DNA of 64,000 nt from Burkholderia mayonis (lineage in GTDB: Bacteria; Pseudomonadota; Gammaproteobacteria; Burkholderiales; Burkholderiaceae): the NCBI RefSeq assembly GCF_001523745.2, contig NZ_CP013387.1, forward strand, positions 2,542,001 to 2,606,000, in the 5' to 3' direction. The notes beneath the pieces are model-generated. The model had not been told where the DNA came from. It did no database searches and worked only from the letters and a program-made list of their open reading frames with translations. The translations under genes and the position numbers were made by a program. Each line of letters begins with the position of its first letter. Positions within the stretch are counted from its first letter, which is position 1. Of the stretch, positions 24,424 through 32,254 are shown piece after piece.

Positions 24424-24640
24424 TTAGCCGCTTAGCCTGCGCAGGTCTCGCAAATCATTACAGAACCGCCCCCCATCTCCGCAGGCAAGCCGCGCAAACC
24501 GATACCTGCCCTCAGCACGAACAGGACGTCCGTCAATACCGCCAGGTCCAGCACTCGCTTGCGGCCCGGGTACTTGAAGCCGCACGGCTTCGCTGGCGGC
24601 AGGAGCGATTCGATCAGCGCCCGCGTTCGTCGCCAATAAT
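24424..24640 (-). pseudogene. N-terminal fragment of an IS5-family (IS427-type) transposase
   Basis: Minus-strand translation gives NYWRRTRALIESLLPPAKPC, then GFKYPGRKRVLDLAVLTDVL and FVLRAGIGLRGLPAEMGGGS. This is the N-terminal half typical of IS427-type transposases, with several normally fixed residues changed (IRWNDLP-like site reads IGLRGLP). The frame then ends and no catalytic Asp region follows. It is an old, truncated copy forming the left border of the accessory island. Confidence 0.75.
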
Positions 24641-24780
24641 TGGCTTATCCGTCTCCTTGGTCTGCCTATCCTGAAGATAATGCTAACCGGCTCCATGAAA
24701 CAGAAGCAGTCCCTTCACCTCTTCTTGGTCCAACTGCCCGAATCCGCACGCCCCCCTTACGCCCCAACCCCATTGAAACA

Positions 24781-25998
24781 TCACGTGCCCGTCGGCTCTA
24801 GCGCCGCTGCGACGAACCCTGCAAGAAAGAGCGCGTGCGCCAACGTTACGGAACCGTCCATGCCGAGTCCGGACGCCAGATCCCGGACCAGAAACGACTC
24901 GCTTTCCGTGATGGTGGCGATCGCGTCGCGCACATAACCCGGCAAAGTCATCGATTTGCCGTCAAAGGTAAGCACGATCTGATCTTCGTTTTGAGAAACG
25001 TGGAATCGACCGGGTGGCAGCCGATAAAGGCGCGTATCGGATCCAATGGTTGTCGCCTGAGGTTTGAAGAAACCGCGTCGCCTGATTGTGCCGCGCGCCA
25101 CTTTTCTCGTAAAGGTATCGACTACGGTCTGCGGTTCAACGAGGGATTGGAGTGTACCGAGAATCTCGTGGAGCGACGATGCCAGATGTGCAACGGATTC
25201 CGGATTGTTTGCAAAGCCGGGCGGCAAAGCCCGACGAAGATCGACTCGCTCCTTGCAGGCAGCCAGTGTTTCGGCGATCAATTCGACCCACGTGTAGACA
25301 CTGATGCCAAGCGTGACATGGACCGAATGGGCGCTGCTCGTAAGCGTATCGTGAACATAGCCACGCGGCAGGTACAGAACGTCGCCCGGCATGAGATCGA
25401 TTTCGAGCATGGGCTTGGGCAGCTGATATCCCGCGGGAGAAAAGGGTTGCGTATGGTGTGGAAGCAGTAGAGGCGGCTCGTACACTCGCCAGTGCTTTAG
25501 GCCATCGATCTGCAAAATGAACACTTCATGAGCATCGTAGTGCGCGGAAAACCCCGACGTGCCGCCTGGAGTCATATACAGGTTGGTGTGCACCACATGA
25601 TTGAGTTCGGCCTCCATGGCGGCGCAAAGCAGATTCAGCGGGGGCCACGTTCGATGGAGGGCCGGCAAGATCACTGAGGCGCCGGTCCGATAGTGAGCGT
25701 ATACCGTATCGAGATCAGGAACGCCGCGAAACAGATCGTCTCCATAGTGCAAATCTATTGAATAAGTGTCAGGGGCAAGATAGCGGCCCGCTTTCGCGAG
25801 CCGGATTCCCGGATGGCGAATGTCGTGCTTGGCTAGCATGGTTTCAACATCGCCCGCCGAAATCAATTGCGCGTAGTGCCTTTGATGTCCCCTCGAGAGA
25901 TGCATCGGCTTCGCTTCCCAATATTCGGAAAAGAACTGATCTGCACTGAGCGGGGCAATCAGATCGGAGAATGTGAACGGGGCGTTGTCTGTTGCCAT
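24781..25998 (-). CDS. JmjC/cupin_4 2-oxoglutarate Fe(II) oxygenase
   Basis: 405 residues. The fold matches cupin_4 / ribosomal-oxygenase-like JmjC proteins. An N-terminal approach segment reads FFSEYWEAKPMHLSRG, then the double-stranded beta-helix core carries the iron triad: His153 and Asp155 in GFSAHYDAHEVFILQIDG and the distal His216 in LPRGYVHDTL. KHWRVY follows the first pair as in the family. About 170 residues of helical C-terminal domain remain. Relatives hydroxylate Arg, His, Asn or Lys side chains of proteins. Its closest minus-strand neighbour, about 420 bases upstream, encodes an octapeptide-repeat protein rich in Arg-Asn, an attractive substrate; this pairing is inference. GC is lower than in flanking genes. 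Confidence 0.85.
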   Translation of the reverse strand: MATDNAPFTFSDLIAPLSADQFFSEYWEAKPMHLSRGHQRHYAQLISAGDVETMLAKHDIRHPGIRLAKAGRYLAPDTYSIDLHYGDDLFRGVPDLDTVYAHYRTGASVILPALHRTWPPLNLLCAAMEAELNHVVHTNLYMTPGGTSGFSAHYDAHEVFILQIDGLKHWRVYEPPLLLPHHTQPFSPAGYQLPKPMLEIDLMPGDVLYLPRGYVHDTLTSSAHSVHVTLGISVYTWVELIAETLAACKERVDLRRALPPGFANNPESVAHLASSLHEILGTLQSLVEPQTVVDTFTRKVARGTIRRRGFFKPQATTIGSDTRLYRLPPGRFHVSQNEDQIVLTFDGKSMTLPGYVRDAIATITESESFLVRDLASGLGMDGSVTLAHALFLAGFVAAALEPTGT

Positions 25999-26415
25999 AT
26001 GGAGTCACCTATCGAGAATCGAAGAGGTTGAGTCAACACATCCGGCAAAAAATGCTTTCGTTTTTGTCGCGACGCACGATGGAAACCATCTGCCCGCACT
26101 CAGGGCTTTGCCTTCCGTCAACAGAATGGATGCTGCACCGGGCGTATCCGGACGCACGTCCACGCCCAAACTCGACCGATAGTCCGATTGCGAAAGCGGC
26201 AGCGACGCTGCAGTGCGGTACACACAGTGAGTGCCACGAGTTCAACGTCACCCGTGTACGCACTACCACGCGAACAGCGAAGAAGCGTTGCTTGATGCCG
26301 TATTGAACTCCGAGATGGCAATCGGGCATCTACACGCCGTTAATGCTCGAGCGCTCGGCACGAGCGACTCGAGCATGTGAATTCCGTGATCAGGCCAAGC
26401 TGATCGCGAAATCAA
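25999..26415. other. Intergenic region between JmjC and repeat-protein genes
   Basis: About 415 bases with no gene. It should contain the JmjC promoter or the read-through leader from the repeat gene. A strong hairpin near its right end (26343-26376) is listed separately. Confidence 0.45.
26343..26376 (-). terminator. Strong hairpin downstream of the octapeptide-repeat gene
   Basis: A 15-bp arm ATGCTCGAGCGCTCG pairs with CGAGCG-A-CTCGAGCAT across a three-base loop, with one bulged A. It starts about 40 bases past the repeat-gene stop on the transcribed strand. No T run follows, so it may be a partial terminator, an mRNA-stabilising end, or a switch setting the ratio of repeat protein to JmjC enzyme. 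Confidence 0.5.
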
Positions 26416-30493: not shown

Positions 30494-31962
30494 ATTACTG
30501 TGTCACAAAAAATATATAATGAGCGTACCTTGGCACTGTTCATGAGAAGCGATGAGCGCGAGCGAGCGGTTTGAGCGATACATGGAGCATTTGGCGGCGG
30601 GTCTCGGGCACGCGGATCGGCGTGCCGGGCTGCATGGTTATTGCACGGGATTGATGTTGCCGCTGTCGCGCAAGAGCGTTGAGCCGATGGCCGCAGGAAT
30701 CGACCCGCTGCATGTCAGCGCACGTCACCAAGCTCTGCATCACTTTGTCGCGAAAGCGGAATGGTCCGACGACGAGATGTTGCGCAGGGTCTGTCAGTGG
30801 GTGGTTCCGAAAATGAATTTCTCGACAGGCGGCTTCTGGATCATTGACGACACGGGTTTTCCGAAGAAAGGTAAGCATTCGGTTGGTGTAGCGCGGCAGT
30901 ATTGCGGCGTATCGGGCAAGCAGGACAACTGCCAGGTCGCGGTGAGCATTTCACTGGCGAACGAGCAGGCGAGCATCCCGGTGGCGTGGCGCCTGTATCT
31001 GCCTCAGGAGTGGGCTGAGGATGCGCAGCGGCGTAAAAAGGCCGGCGTGCCGCCGGAGGTGACATTTGCCACGAAGACGGAAATTGCCCTGCAACAACTG
31101 GAAGCCCTGCTGGCCGCAGGCGCACCGCGGCACTGTGTGCTGGCCGATGCAGGTTATGGAGTCGACACCTCTTTTCGTCAGCGTCTGGGCGAACTGGGGT
31201 TGGACTATGTCGTGGGCATCACATCGGCAGTGGTTGTCTGGCCGCCCGGCATCGAACCGCTGCCGACTGAGCCCTATGATGGTCGTGGCCGCCCGCCCGT
31301 GAGGCTGCGGGAAATAGCGCAGCGCAAGCCAATGAAGGTCAAGGATCTGGCCCGCGCGCTGCCTGAAACCGTATTCCAGACGGTACGCTGGCGCGAAGGC
31401 AGCAACAACATGCTCAGCGGTCGATTTGCCGCAGTACGGGTATGCCACGCCGGAGGCGACCGGGGCCGCGCCCGTTTGCATGCTGAGCAATGGTTGTTGA
31501 TCGAGTGGCTCGCGGGCGATGCCGAGCCGCTGAAATATTTCCTCTCCACGCTGCCGCCGGATATCCCATTAACCGAACTGGTGGCCAAAGCACACATGCG
31601 CTGGCGCATCGAGCGTGACTATCAGGATCTGAAACAGAACCTGGGTCTCGGCCACTACGAGGGCCGTGGCTGGCGCGGATTCCACCATCATGCGGTCCTG
31701 AGCATCGCGGCTTACGGGTTTCTCGTCGCTGAACGAATCGCCGCCGGCAAGACGCCCGGCGCTACAAAAAACGCCGTCGCACGCCAAGTCTTTGCACTAC
31801 CCGAAGATTACATTCCACGGGGAAGCCCAGCGCGCCCAGCGTCACGTTCCTGATTCGATTACTGCACTGCGCCATCACATCGCCTCGGCGCTCATCGCCA
31901 GACTCGCGCGTTGCCCATGCTGCGAACAAGCCAATCCACGAATTACTTTGTGACACAGTAAT
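30494..31962 (+). mobile_element. IS701-family insertion sequence, apparently complete
   Basis: 1469 bases bounded by perfect 16-bp inverted repeats, ATTACTGTGTCACAAA at 30494-30509 and its complement at 31947-31962. It contains one full-length DDE transposase. The four bases outside each end (TATC and ACTA) do not match, so no target duplication is visible. Confidence 0.85.
30552..31853 (+). CDS. IS701-family transposase
   Basis: 433 residues, full length for the family. The DDE catalytic residues are in FWIIDDTGFPKKGKHSVGVA (first Asp), HCVLADAGYG (second Asp) and MRWRIERDYQDLKQNLGLGH (Glu), the last followed by the typical YEGRGWRGFHHHAVLSIAAY. It cuts and joins the terminal repeats of the element that encodes it. 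The frame is uninterrupted, so the element may still be active. Confidence 0.92.
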   Translation: MSASERFERYMEHLAAGLGHADRRAGLHGYCTGLMLPLSRKSVEPMAAGIDPLHVSARHQALHHFVAKAEWSDDEMLRRVCQWVVPKMNFSTGGFWIIDDTGFPKKGKHSVGVARQYCGVSGKQDNCQVAVSISLANEQASIPVAWRLYLPQEWAEDAQRRKKAGVPPEVTFATKTEIALQQLEALLAAGAPRHCVLADAGYGVDTSFRQRLGELGLDYVVGITSAVVVWPPGIEPLPTEPYDGRGRPPVRLREIAQRKPMKVKDLARALPETVFQTVRWREGSNNMLSGRFAAVRVCHAGGDRGRARLHAEQWLLIEWLAGDAEPLKYFLSTLPPDIPLTELVAKAHMRWRIERDYQDLKQNLGLGHYEGRGWRGFHHHAVLSIAAYGFLVAERIAAGKTPGATKNAVARQVFALPEDYIPRGSPARPASRS

Positions 31963-31972
31963 ACTATAGATG

Positions 31973-32254
31973 TCATGAACCTATATGGACGAGGTCGATG
32001 ATTTTTGTCAGCATCAGACAGGTGAAGGCGAGGAAACGGAATCCCGCCAGCGTTTGGGGCCAGCGTTCATAGTCACGCGCGAGGCGGCGAAAACGCGTGG
32101 CCCACGCGAAGCTGCGCTCGACCACCCAGCGTCTGGGCAGCAGCACGAATCCGCGTTTGGCCTCGGTATGCTTGGCCACTTCCAATTCAATGCCGTGGTT
32201 TTGCGCTGCCAGCTGAGCCGCTTCGCCGGTATAACCCTGATCCACGTATGCAAT
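31973..32254 (-). pseudogene. C-terminal fragment of an IS5-family (ISL2/IS1031-like) transposase
   Basis: 93 codons from IAYVDQGYTGEAAQLAAQN to the stop, including FVLLPRRWVVERSFAWATRF with the catalytic Glu and ending TCLMLTKIIDLVHIG. The second catalytic Asp (VDQGYTG) is also present, but the frame upstream loses homology at once, so the N-terminal two thirds are gone. It begins 11 bases beyond the IS701 right end and marks the right border of the island. The wording differs from the fragment at 24.4 kb, so they come from different elements. Confidence 0.82.

What the first reader, a model, noticed from the sequence alone, without database searches (positions are those of the whole stretch)
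24424..32254. Accessory island with an oxygenase/repeat-protein/diiron cargo between two transposase relics
A JmjC oxygenase, an octapeptide-repeat protein, a 57-residue protein, a tandem HDO diiron protein and an ALDH-like protein sit together in visibly less GC-rich DNA. They are bounded at 24.4 and 32.0 kb by fragments of two different IS5-family transposases and next to an intact IS701 element. Two unrelated metal oxygenases plus a peptide with many identical units is the layout of a peptide- or metabolite-tailoring system. I know of no described pathway with this exact gene set.
Basis: partly seen in the sequence, partly recalled or inferred. Interest (0 to 1): 0.88.

Follow-up and report, generated by a model that had tools for sequence, protein, structure and literature searches.

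The report
Small-protein and iron-oxidase gene cassette
A stretch of foreign-looking DNA in a Burkholderia-type genome carries genes that seem to make a tiny protein and alter its end with iron enzymes; the central genes recur together in bacteria of several phyla and may make a peptide-derived compound nobody has described.

Summary
The island is real: five genes of low GC3 (0.55-0.65; window ORFs average 0.80) between IS5-type relics and an IS701 element. It holds a core and an add-on.

Core (27409-30283): a 57-aa protein (P57), a tandem haem-oxygenase-like dimetal oxidase (HDO) and a compact, possibly aldehyde-dehydrogenase-like protein. P57 precedes HDO in 10 of 10 related loci examined (Pseudomonas, Actinobacteria, Chloroflexi, another Burkholderiaceae genus); the third gene follows in 9 of 10. 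P57 has an almost fixed C-terminus, LRAA(I/V)VE-stop; all 72 database relatives returned end in Glu. This fits a ribosomal precursor or carrier peptide whose C-terminus is oxidised.

Add-on: an 18-octad repeat protein plus a JmjC oxygenase, on the opposite strand. It occurs with the core in one other genus, there without the IS elements, and in none of nine more distant loci. The repeat protein is the most constrained of the five (dN/dS about 0.04).

The papers I searched do not describe the trio.

The parts
24441..24644 (-). relic of an IS5-family transposase (N-terminal part); not part of the cassette
   Evidence: weak match to NF033580 positions 11-59, E 9e-5
24781..25998 (-). JmjC_2 oxygenase, 405 aa; putative metal triad H153-x-D155 ... 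H216
   Evidence: PF08007 E 1.1e-27; nearest solved relatives NO66 and MINA, E 1e-29; motif positions
26416..26931 (-). octapeptide-repeat protein (REP), 171 aa, 18 octads of [RK]N-x-x-x-[DE]-x-x type
   Evidence: strong match only in G000 and G097 among 160 family genomes
26932..27408 (.). intergenic region between the divergent REP and P57 genes (no promoter signal above chance)
27409..27582 (+). P57: 57-aa candidate precursor or carrier peptide ending LRAAVVE
   Evidence: 72 of 72 relatives returned end in E; just upstream of HDO in 10 of 10 related loci examined
27643..29409 (+). tandem haem-oxygenase-like dimetal oxidase (HDO), 588 aa
   Evidence: PF03070 E 8e-13 and PF14518 E 6e-9; putative ligand positions invariant in 21 of 21 aligned homologues
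29345..30283 (+). compact aldehyde-dehydrogenase-like protein (ALDHl), 312 aa; its start overlaps the end of the HDO gene
   Evidence: weak ALDH similarity
30494..31962 (+). IS701-family element: transposase 30552-31853 and 16-bp terminal inverted repeats; not part of the cassette
   Evidence: NF033540 E 2e-131; inverted repeats
31973..32263 (-). relic of an IS5-family transposase (C-terminal part); not part of the cassette
   Evidence: NF033580 positions 175-258, E 1e-17

Best explanation
The core is a small ribosomal-peptide modification pathway. P57 is the precursor or carrier: a front part, probably helical, for recognition and a fixed C-terminal tail LRAA(I/V)VE. The tail, most likely its last residue Glu, enters the first dimetal site of the tandem HDO, where its carboxylate can bind iron as substrates do in other HDOs; O2 chemistry there desaturates, hydroxylates or cleaves the C-terminal residue(s). 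ALDHl, whose reading frame overlaps that of HDO and so is probably made with it, handles the resulting carbonyl or acyl intermediate through a conserved cysteine (Cys233). A host peptidase would then release a small product. In Burkholderiaceae a second, divergent operon adds a repeat protein and a JmjC 2-oxoglutarate oxygenase that probably hydroxylates the repeat protein at several octads. Shown: gene order, conservation, fixed tail, conserved putative ligands, purifying selection. Inferred: that P57 is the substrate, which residue is changed, the chemistry, the order of steps, the role of REP and JmjC, and the product.
For: P57 just upstream of HDO in 10 of 10 related loci examined; nine of these (L013-L021) were picked through HDO alone. 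In each of these ten loci (18-22 kb each) and in the 64-kb window the tail motif ends exactly one ORF on either strand. All 72 P57 relatives end in E; over 67 with distinct 31-residue ends, positions -1 (E), -6 (R) and -7 (L) do not vary while many body positions do and the length falls to 31 aa. HDO N-half: E134, H137, E190, H223, D227, H232 invariant in 21 of 21, matching in kind the 3H/3C ligand set of the HDO review PMC13108848 (passages read; the assignment of single residues is mine). ALDHl follows HDO in 9 of 10 loci, with overlapping frames in the window and L012. Review passage: in the five substrate-bound 3H/3C structures the substrate itself binds Fe1. Precedent: the HDO-type VarO takes part in thiovarsolin RiPP biosynthesis with a repeating precursor, though the paper leaves open whether VarO acts on the precursor or after proteolysis (PMC6511847, passages read). 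MFS transporter genes near the cassette in L014, L015 and L017. All five genes under purifying selection between two genera.
Against: No exporter or protease is encoded in the five-gene cassette, and Pfam detected no recognition (RRE) domain in HDO or ALDHl. P57 has no clear leader/core border, and its tail hardly varies, whereas RiPP cores often do. L016 lacks ALDHl near HDO. The C-half of HDO has Gln492 where the N-half has Glu190, in 21 of 21, so it may not bind two metals. The 72-of-72 count comes from a profile that already contained the tail, which favours such hits. The MFS, redoxin and ATP-grasp neighbours each occur in only some loci. No structure, mass or product data.
Confidence: 0.5

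Rival explanations
1. P57 is not a substrate but a small effector or assembly subunit of the tandem HDO. Its fixed tail plugs into the enzyme to gate O2 or load metal, and the true substrate is a free metabolite.
For: The tail is nearly invariant over several phyla while the rest varies, as expected of a docking motif; the front part can be very short (31-33 aa proteins).
Against: The HDO review states that the HDOs studied so far do not need a protein effector (passage). A Glu fixed at the very last position suggests chemistry at the C-terminus.
Confidence: 0.25
2. P57 is an amino-group-carrier-like or scaffold peptide (compare LysW, or the scaffolds of peptide aminoacyl-tRNA ligases; both recalled). 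A small molecule is first attached to the C-terminal Glu or extended from it, modified by HDO and ALDHl, then released.
For: Small protein with a fixed C-terminal Glu, as recalled for LysW-type carriers; an ATP-grasp ligase gene lies next to the trio in L021.
Against: The recalled LysW tail EDWGE is absent; no ATP-grasp, kinase or ligase family was found in the window cassette; the ATP-grasp gene was seen in one locus only.
Confidence: 0.15
3. REP is the real precursor of the whole five-gene system (a many-core RiPP) and P57 is accessory. JmjC and HDO both modify the octads.
For: REP sits in the same block in two genera, has the lowest dN/dS, 0.036, and differs between them by exactly one octad, as modular precursors do; thiovarsolin has an HDO plus a repeating precursor.
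Against: HDO occurs with P57 and without REP or JmjC in nine of nine distant loci.
Confidence: 0.07
4. Chance neighbourhood or decaying remnant caught between insertion sequences.
For: IS relics and an IS701 element flank the block; low GC3.
Against: Same order in another genus without the IS elements; dN/dS 0.04-0.27; P57-HDO order kept in distant phyla.
Confidence: 0.03

Closest known systems
Thiovarsolin RiPP pathway (varA precursor with repeats, varO haem-oxygenase-like enzyme)
   Same: Ribosomal peptide, an HDO-type enzyme and an MFS gene in one cluster (PMC6511847, passages)
   Different: Thiovarsolin needs a YcaO-TfuA pair; no such family was found among the cassette proteins. Here HDO is a tandem fusion with an ALDH-like partner
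Peptide-acting HDO MboA with partner MboB (mangotoxin)
   Same: HDO acting on a peptide substrate (PMC13185094, passages)
   Different: MboA acts on a short peptide made by ligases; here the candidate substrate is gene-encoded
JmjC_2 ribosomal oxygenases NO66, MINA and the L16 arginine hydroxylase
   Same: The cassette JmjC protein is a sequence relative (E 1e-29 for NO66 and MINA) with an H-x-D...H motif
   Different: Those act on ribosomal proteins (recalled, and partly so named by depositors); this one sits beside an octad-repeat protein
Aldehyde dehydrogenase superfamily (best template in my five-sequence profile: CoA-acylating EutE)
   Same: Collinear weak match over 143 columns, placing the conserved SC motif on the stretch of EutE that I recall as its active-site cysteine
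   Different: About 300 aa instead of 417-494, no Pfam Aldedh hit
LysW-type amino-group carrier proteins (recalled)
   Same: Very small protein with a fixed C-terminal Glu
   Different: Different tail, no partner enzymes of that pathway in the cassette

Membership tests
RiPP pathway | short gene-encoded precursor next to modifying enzymes | tested here: met
   P57 next to HDO in 10 of 10 related loci examined
RiPP pathway | peptide is covalently modified and released | not testable with these tools
   needs mass spectrometry
RiPP pathway | recognition domain (RRE), protease or exporter in the cluster | tested here: inconclusive
   none found by Pfam in the five cassette proteins; MFS genes near three actinobacterial loci
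HDO superfamily | PF14518/PF03070 similarity | tested here: met
HDO superfamily | 3H/3C metal-ligand set | tested here: inconclusive
   N-half: six fitting positions invariant in 21 of 21; C-half: Gln in place of one Glu in 21 of 21. Ligands assigned by analogy, no structure
HDO superfamily | alpha-helical haem-oxygenase-like fold | not tested
   structure prediction was busy, then switched off
JmjC_2 oxygenase | PF08007 match and H-x-D...H metal triad | tested here: met
JmjC_2 ribosomal oxygenase | hydroxylates a ribosomal protein | not testable with these tools
   substrate unknown; REP is the genetic neighbour
Aldehyde dehydrogenase superfamily | Pfam Aldedh domain | tested here: not met
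   no hit
Aldehyde dehydrogenase superfamily | remote profile similarity with a conserved cysteine | tested here: inconclusive
   E 0.13-0.14 to five ALDH chains; hhalign 23% probability against a five-ALDH profile, 0.9% and 0.3% for two unrelated profiles
Amino-group carrier protein (LysW) | tail EDWGE (recalled) | tested here: not met
   tail is LR[AP][AG]..E
Peptide aminoacyl-tRNA ligase system | LanB-type ligase in the cluster (recalled) | tested here: not met
   no such family among the five cassette proteins
IS701 element | full-length transposase and terminal inverted repeats | tested here: met

The most novel reading that the evidence does not exclude
P57-HDO-ALDHl is an undescribed class of ribosomally encoded C-terminal-Glu carrier peptides on whose last residue a tandem dimetal oxidase and a compact ALDH-like enzyme build a small metabolite, spread over at least three phyla; and in Burkholderiaceae it has recruited a second, 18-octad protein that a JmjC oxygenase hydroxylates at many sites.
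Probability: 0.3. Interest if true: 0.87.

Novelty: new variant of a known kind. Interest (0 to 1): 0.7.

Why it matters
The HDO review I read in passages counts about a dozen HDOs with validated function among more than 10,000 sequences and cites one ribosomal-peptide case. A trio whose putative substrate is encoded next door, with a nearly fixed C-terminal tail, gives a directly testable enzyme-substrate pair and a genome-mining signature (LRAA[IV]VE-stop just upstream of a tandem HDO) for a possible new peptide-metabolite class. The octad-repeat protein beside a JmjC enzyme would, if modified, be a multi-site hydroxylation substrate outside the ribosome.

Tried and rejected
Plasmid and phage searches with HDO: no match. 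Plasmid search with a side-system HDO: two weak hits, not followed. Viral-contig scans with HDO and REP: no relative. REP against the protein database: one weak hit of 121 aa, E 6e-5, judged unrelated. Rfam on 24-33 kb at gathering scores: none. Promoter and terminator scan: no more than chance. Pfam hits on REP (type III secretion ExsE, spider silk and others; NCBIfam hits below cut-offs) were set aside as low-complexity matches. REP-like hits in six other family genomes (E 6e-12 to 6e-7, 22-37% identity) were not treated as orthologues. A JmjC relative in G281 (31%) and a weaker one in G283 have different neighbours. The six further family genomes with weak, partial HDO matches were not counted as carriers; two half-length Pseudomonas hits are single-domain HDOs of another cassette. 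The empty-site test was inconclusive: flank stretches of the window match scattered places in the congeners, and none of the listed matches outside G000 covers the cassette (the list was cut). Whether the AlkZ-like and DAHP-synthase genes near the Pseudomonas cassette belong to it was left open.

Paper searches. Among the titles and abstract starts listed I saw none that describes this trio; the library holds open-licence papers only, and one search listed 25 of 37.

Limits of the counts: in the large genome-search runs only the best few first-look candidates per genome were scored (4). In some searches the REP query began one codon early; the HDO query began three residues late.
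Full report
Where it is. The window is G000:C2:2542001-2606000 of a two-contig, 6.59-Mb genome.

What is in the block. On the minus strand, REP (26416-26931) then JmjC (24781-25998); on the plus strand, P57 (27409-27582), HDO (27643-29409) and ALDHl (29345-30283), whose start lies inside the end of the HDO gene (HDO start at the ATG 27643 used from then on). Then an IS701 element at 30494-31962 and an IS5 relic at 31973-32263. At the left, another, weaker IS5 relic at 24441-24644. 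GC3 of the five genes is 0.55-0.65 against a mean of 0.80 for 29 heuristically picked window ORFs outside 21-33.5 kb; 3 of those 29 are at or below 0.65, and some picked ORFs may be in the wrong frame.

Is it a unit? Its P57 is identical to the database protein P0045 named as Trinickia caryophylli. Nucleotide similarity ends exactly at the ALDHl stop codon on one side; on the other no nucleotide match was found beyond JmjC, though a short antisense frame match runs some 50 bases past it. The IS proteins of the window gave no match in the 18-kb stretch of G097. Nei-Gojobori dN/dS: REP 0.036, HDO 0.10, JmjC 0.13, P57 0.135, ALDHl 0.27; dS is 0.85-1.2, near saturation, so these are rough.

How common? 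Tandem HDO at E 1e-30 or better: 1 of 65 genomes of the genus, the window's own; 1 of 369 of the class, again its own; 4 of 298 Pseudomonas, of which 2 are full length (L018's own genome, and G987, whose locus L029 is identical in sequence to L020) and 2 half length; 1 of 394 of the class of L014, that genome itself. In the family, 8 of 299 match at E 1e-3, but only G000 and G097 over the full length. A pattern scan of 84,980 species genomes gave nine confirmed loci, L013-L021: a Chloroflexi MAG, Longimycelium, Streptantibioticus, Microbispora, Streptomyces, three Pseudomonas and Mycolicibacterium; this is a lower bound, and records very near the window may be left out. The protein database adds metagenomic relatives (42 HDO hits in all), among them a Gemmatimonadaceae MAG whose partial HDO and P57 bear neighbouring locus tags, IT356_07235 and IT356_07240. 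JmjC: 4 of 299 family genomes match, only G000 and G097 strongly. REP: 8 of 160 match, only G000 and G097 strongly.

The core. In the nine loci, phmmer found P57 in 7 and ALDHl in 8 of 9; REP and JmjC in none within about 10 kb (less on one side of L015). The two missing P57 genes (L016, L017; 31 and 33 aa) were found by reading the frames upstream of HDO. A scan for LR[AP][AG][VIML][VIAT]E-stop, written after I had seen the family, gave exactly one ORF on either strand in each of L012-L021, just upstream of HDO, and one in the whole window, P57. L016 lacks ALDHl near HDO.

P57. A search with the alignment A3 returned 72 relatives among 3945 candidates. All 72 end in Glu; tails: LRAAIVE 37, LRAAVVE 25, LRAAMIE 4, LRAGVVE 2, LRAALAE 2, LRAAVTE 1, LRPAVVE 1. 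Over the 67 with distinct 31-residue ends, positions -1, -6 and -7 do not vary. The search profile contained the tail, so the count is biased; the loci chosen through HDO are the independent evidence.

HDO. In 21 aligned tandem HDOs, E134, H137, E190, H223, D227 and H232 of the N-half and E440, H443, H523, D527 and H532 of the C-half are invariant; E190 corresponds to Gln492 in the C-half by the half-to-half alignment, also in 21 of 21. The review PMC13108848 describes a 3H/3C ligand set from three helices (passage); my residue assignment follows from spacing and recall, not from a structure.

ALDHl. The window protein has no convincing family hit. Its 10-sequence profile has aldehyde dehydrogenases as its five best solved-structure matches, at E 0.13-0.14, and aligned with a five-sequence ALDH profile at hhalign probability 23%, E 9e-4, over 143 columns, against 0.9% and 0.3% for two unrelated profiles. 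This is suggestive only. Cys233 is invariant in 10 of 10.

JmjC and REP. JmjC is nearest to NO66 and MINA among solved structures and has H153-x-D155 and H216. REP has 18 octads, each starting [RK]N; the copies differ from each other yet are conserved position by position in the other genus, where one octad is missing. That fits a multi-site substrate or a structural protein; I cannot tell which. Its pairing with JmjC is the only reason to think of it as the oxygenase's substrate.

Neighbours elsewhere. MFS genes lie near the cassette in L014, L015 and L017; a similar gene after HDO in L016 was only read by eye. A redoxin gene lies beside it in L018 and some 4 kb downstream in L015; BLAST groups the redoxins of L015, L018, L019 and L020. 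In 59 Pseudomonas genomes that redoxin was found at E 1e-40 only in the carrier itself (1 of 59). An ATP-grasp gene lies next to ALDHl in L021.

Interpretation. The common factor over phyla is P57-HDO, nearly always with ALDHl. A nearly fixed short C-terminal tail on an otherwise drifting small protein, beside a dimetal oxidase in every locus examined, is what a substrate or docking peptide would show. In the five substrate-bound 3H/3C HDO structures the substrate binds iron directly (review passage), so a C-terminal carboxylate is a plausible handle. I give 0.5 to substrate or carrier, 0.25 to effector subunit, 0.15 to a LysW-like or extended carrier, 0.07 to REP as the main substrate, 0.03 to chance.

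Novelty. HDO-type enzymes in RiPP pathways are known in principle (thiovarsolin, PMC6511847, passages). I saw no account of this trio or of the tail motif in the listings of the searches named. Hence 'new variant of a known kind', with a possible new peptide class as the bold reading.

Noticed in passing
It looks like a parallel peptide-HDO system with a C-terminal Lys.
   Followed up: partly
L018:8724-9287, L015:14265-14849, L040:11357-12103: Redoxins sharing a start of the form [LI]P-x-P-x-DDG occur near both kinds of HDO-peptide cassette; a possible dedicated redox partner.
   Followed up: partly
L013:8382-9413: A further single-domain HDO with an N-terminal region that by eye resembles a PqqD-like recognition domain, just upstream of P57 in the Chloroflexi locus; Pfam detects only the HDO part.
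   Followed up: partly
L003/L011, L004/L010, L005/L009 (G263, G268, G118): Pairs of divergent genes with weak HDO matches in three genomes of the window's genus.
   Followed up: no
L018:12975-14306: AlkZ-like DNA glycosylase gene near the Pseudomonas cassette; AlkZ-type enzymes are recalled as self-resistance to DNA-crosslinking products, so the link may deserve a look.
   Followed up: no
L015:5450-7369: Chorismate-binding plus glutamine-amidotransferase gene just upstream of P57 in Streptantibioticus.
   Followed up: no
window 39208-39343: Nine-base tandem repeat, 14.6 copies, 99% match.
   Followed up: no
window 26446-26946 (+): Long open frame antisense to REP, with a counterpart in L012, probably a by-product of the repeat.
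   Followed up: no
L017:3508-9716: Small protein that by eye has a GG-type leader, beside an ABC transporter gene upstream of the Streptomyces cassette; possibly a separate bacteriocin-like cluster.
   Followed up: no
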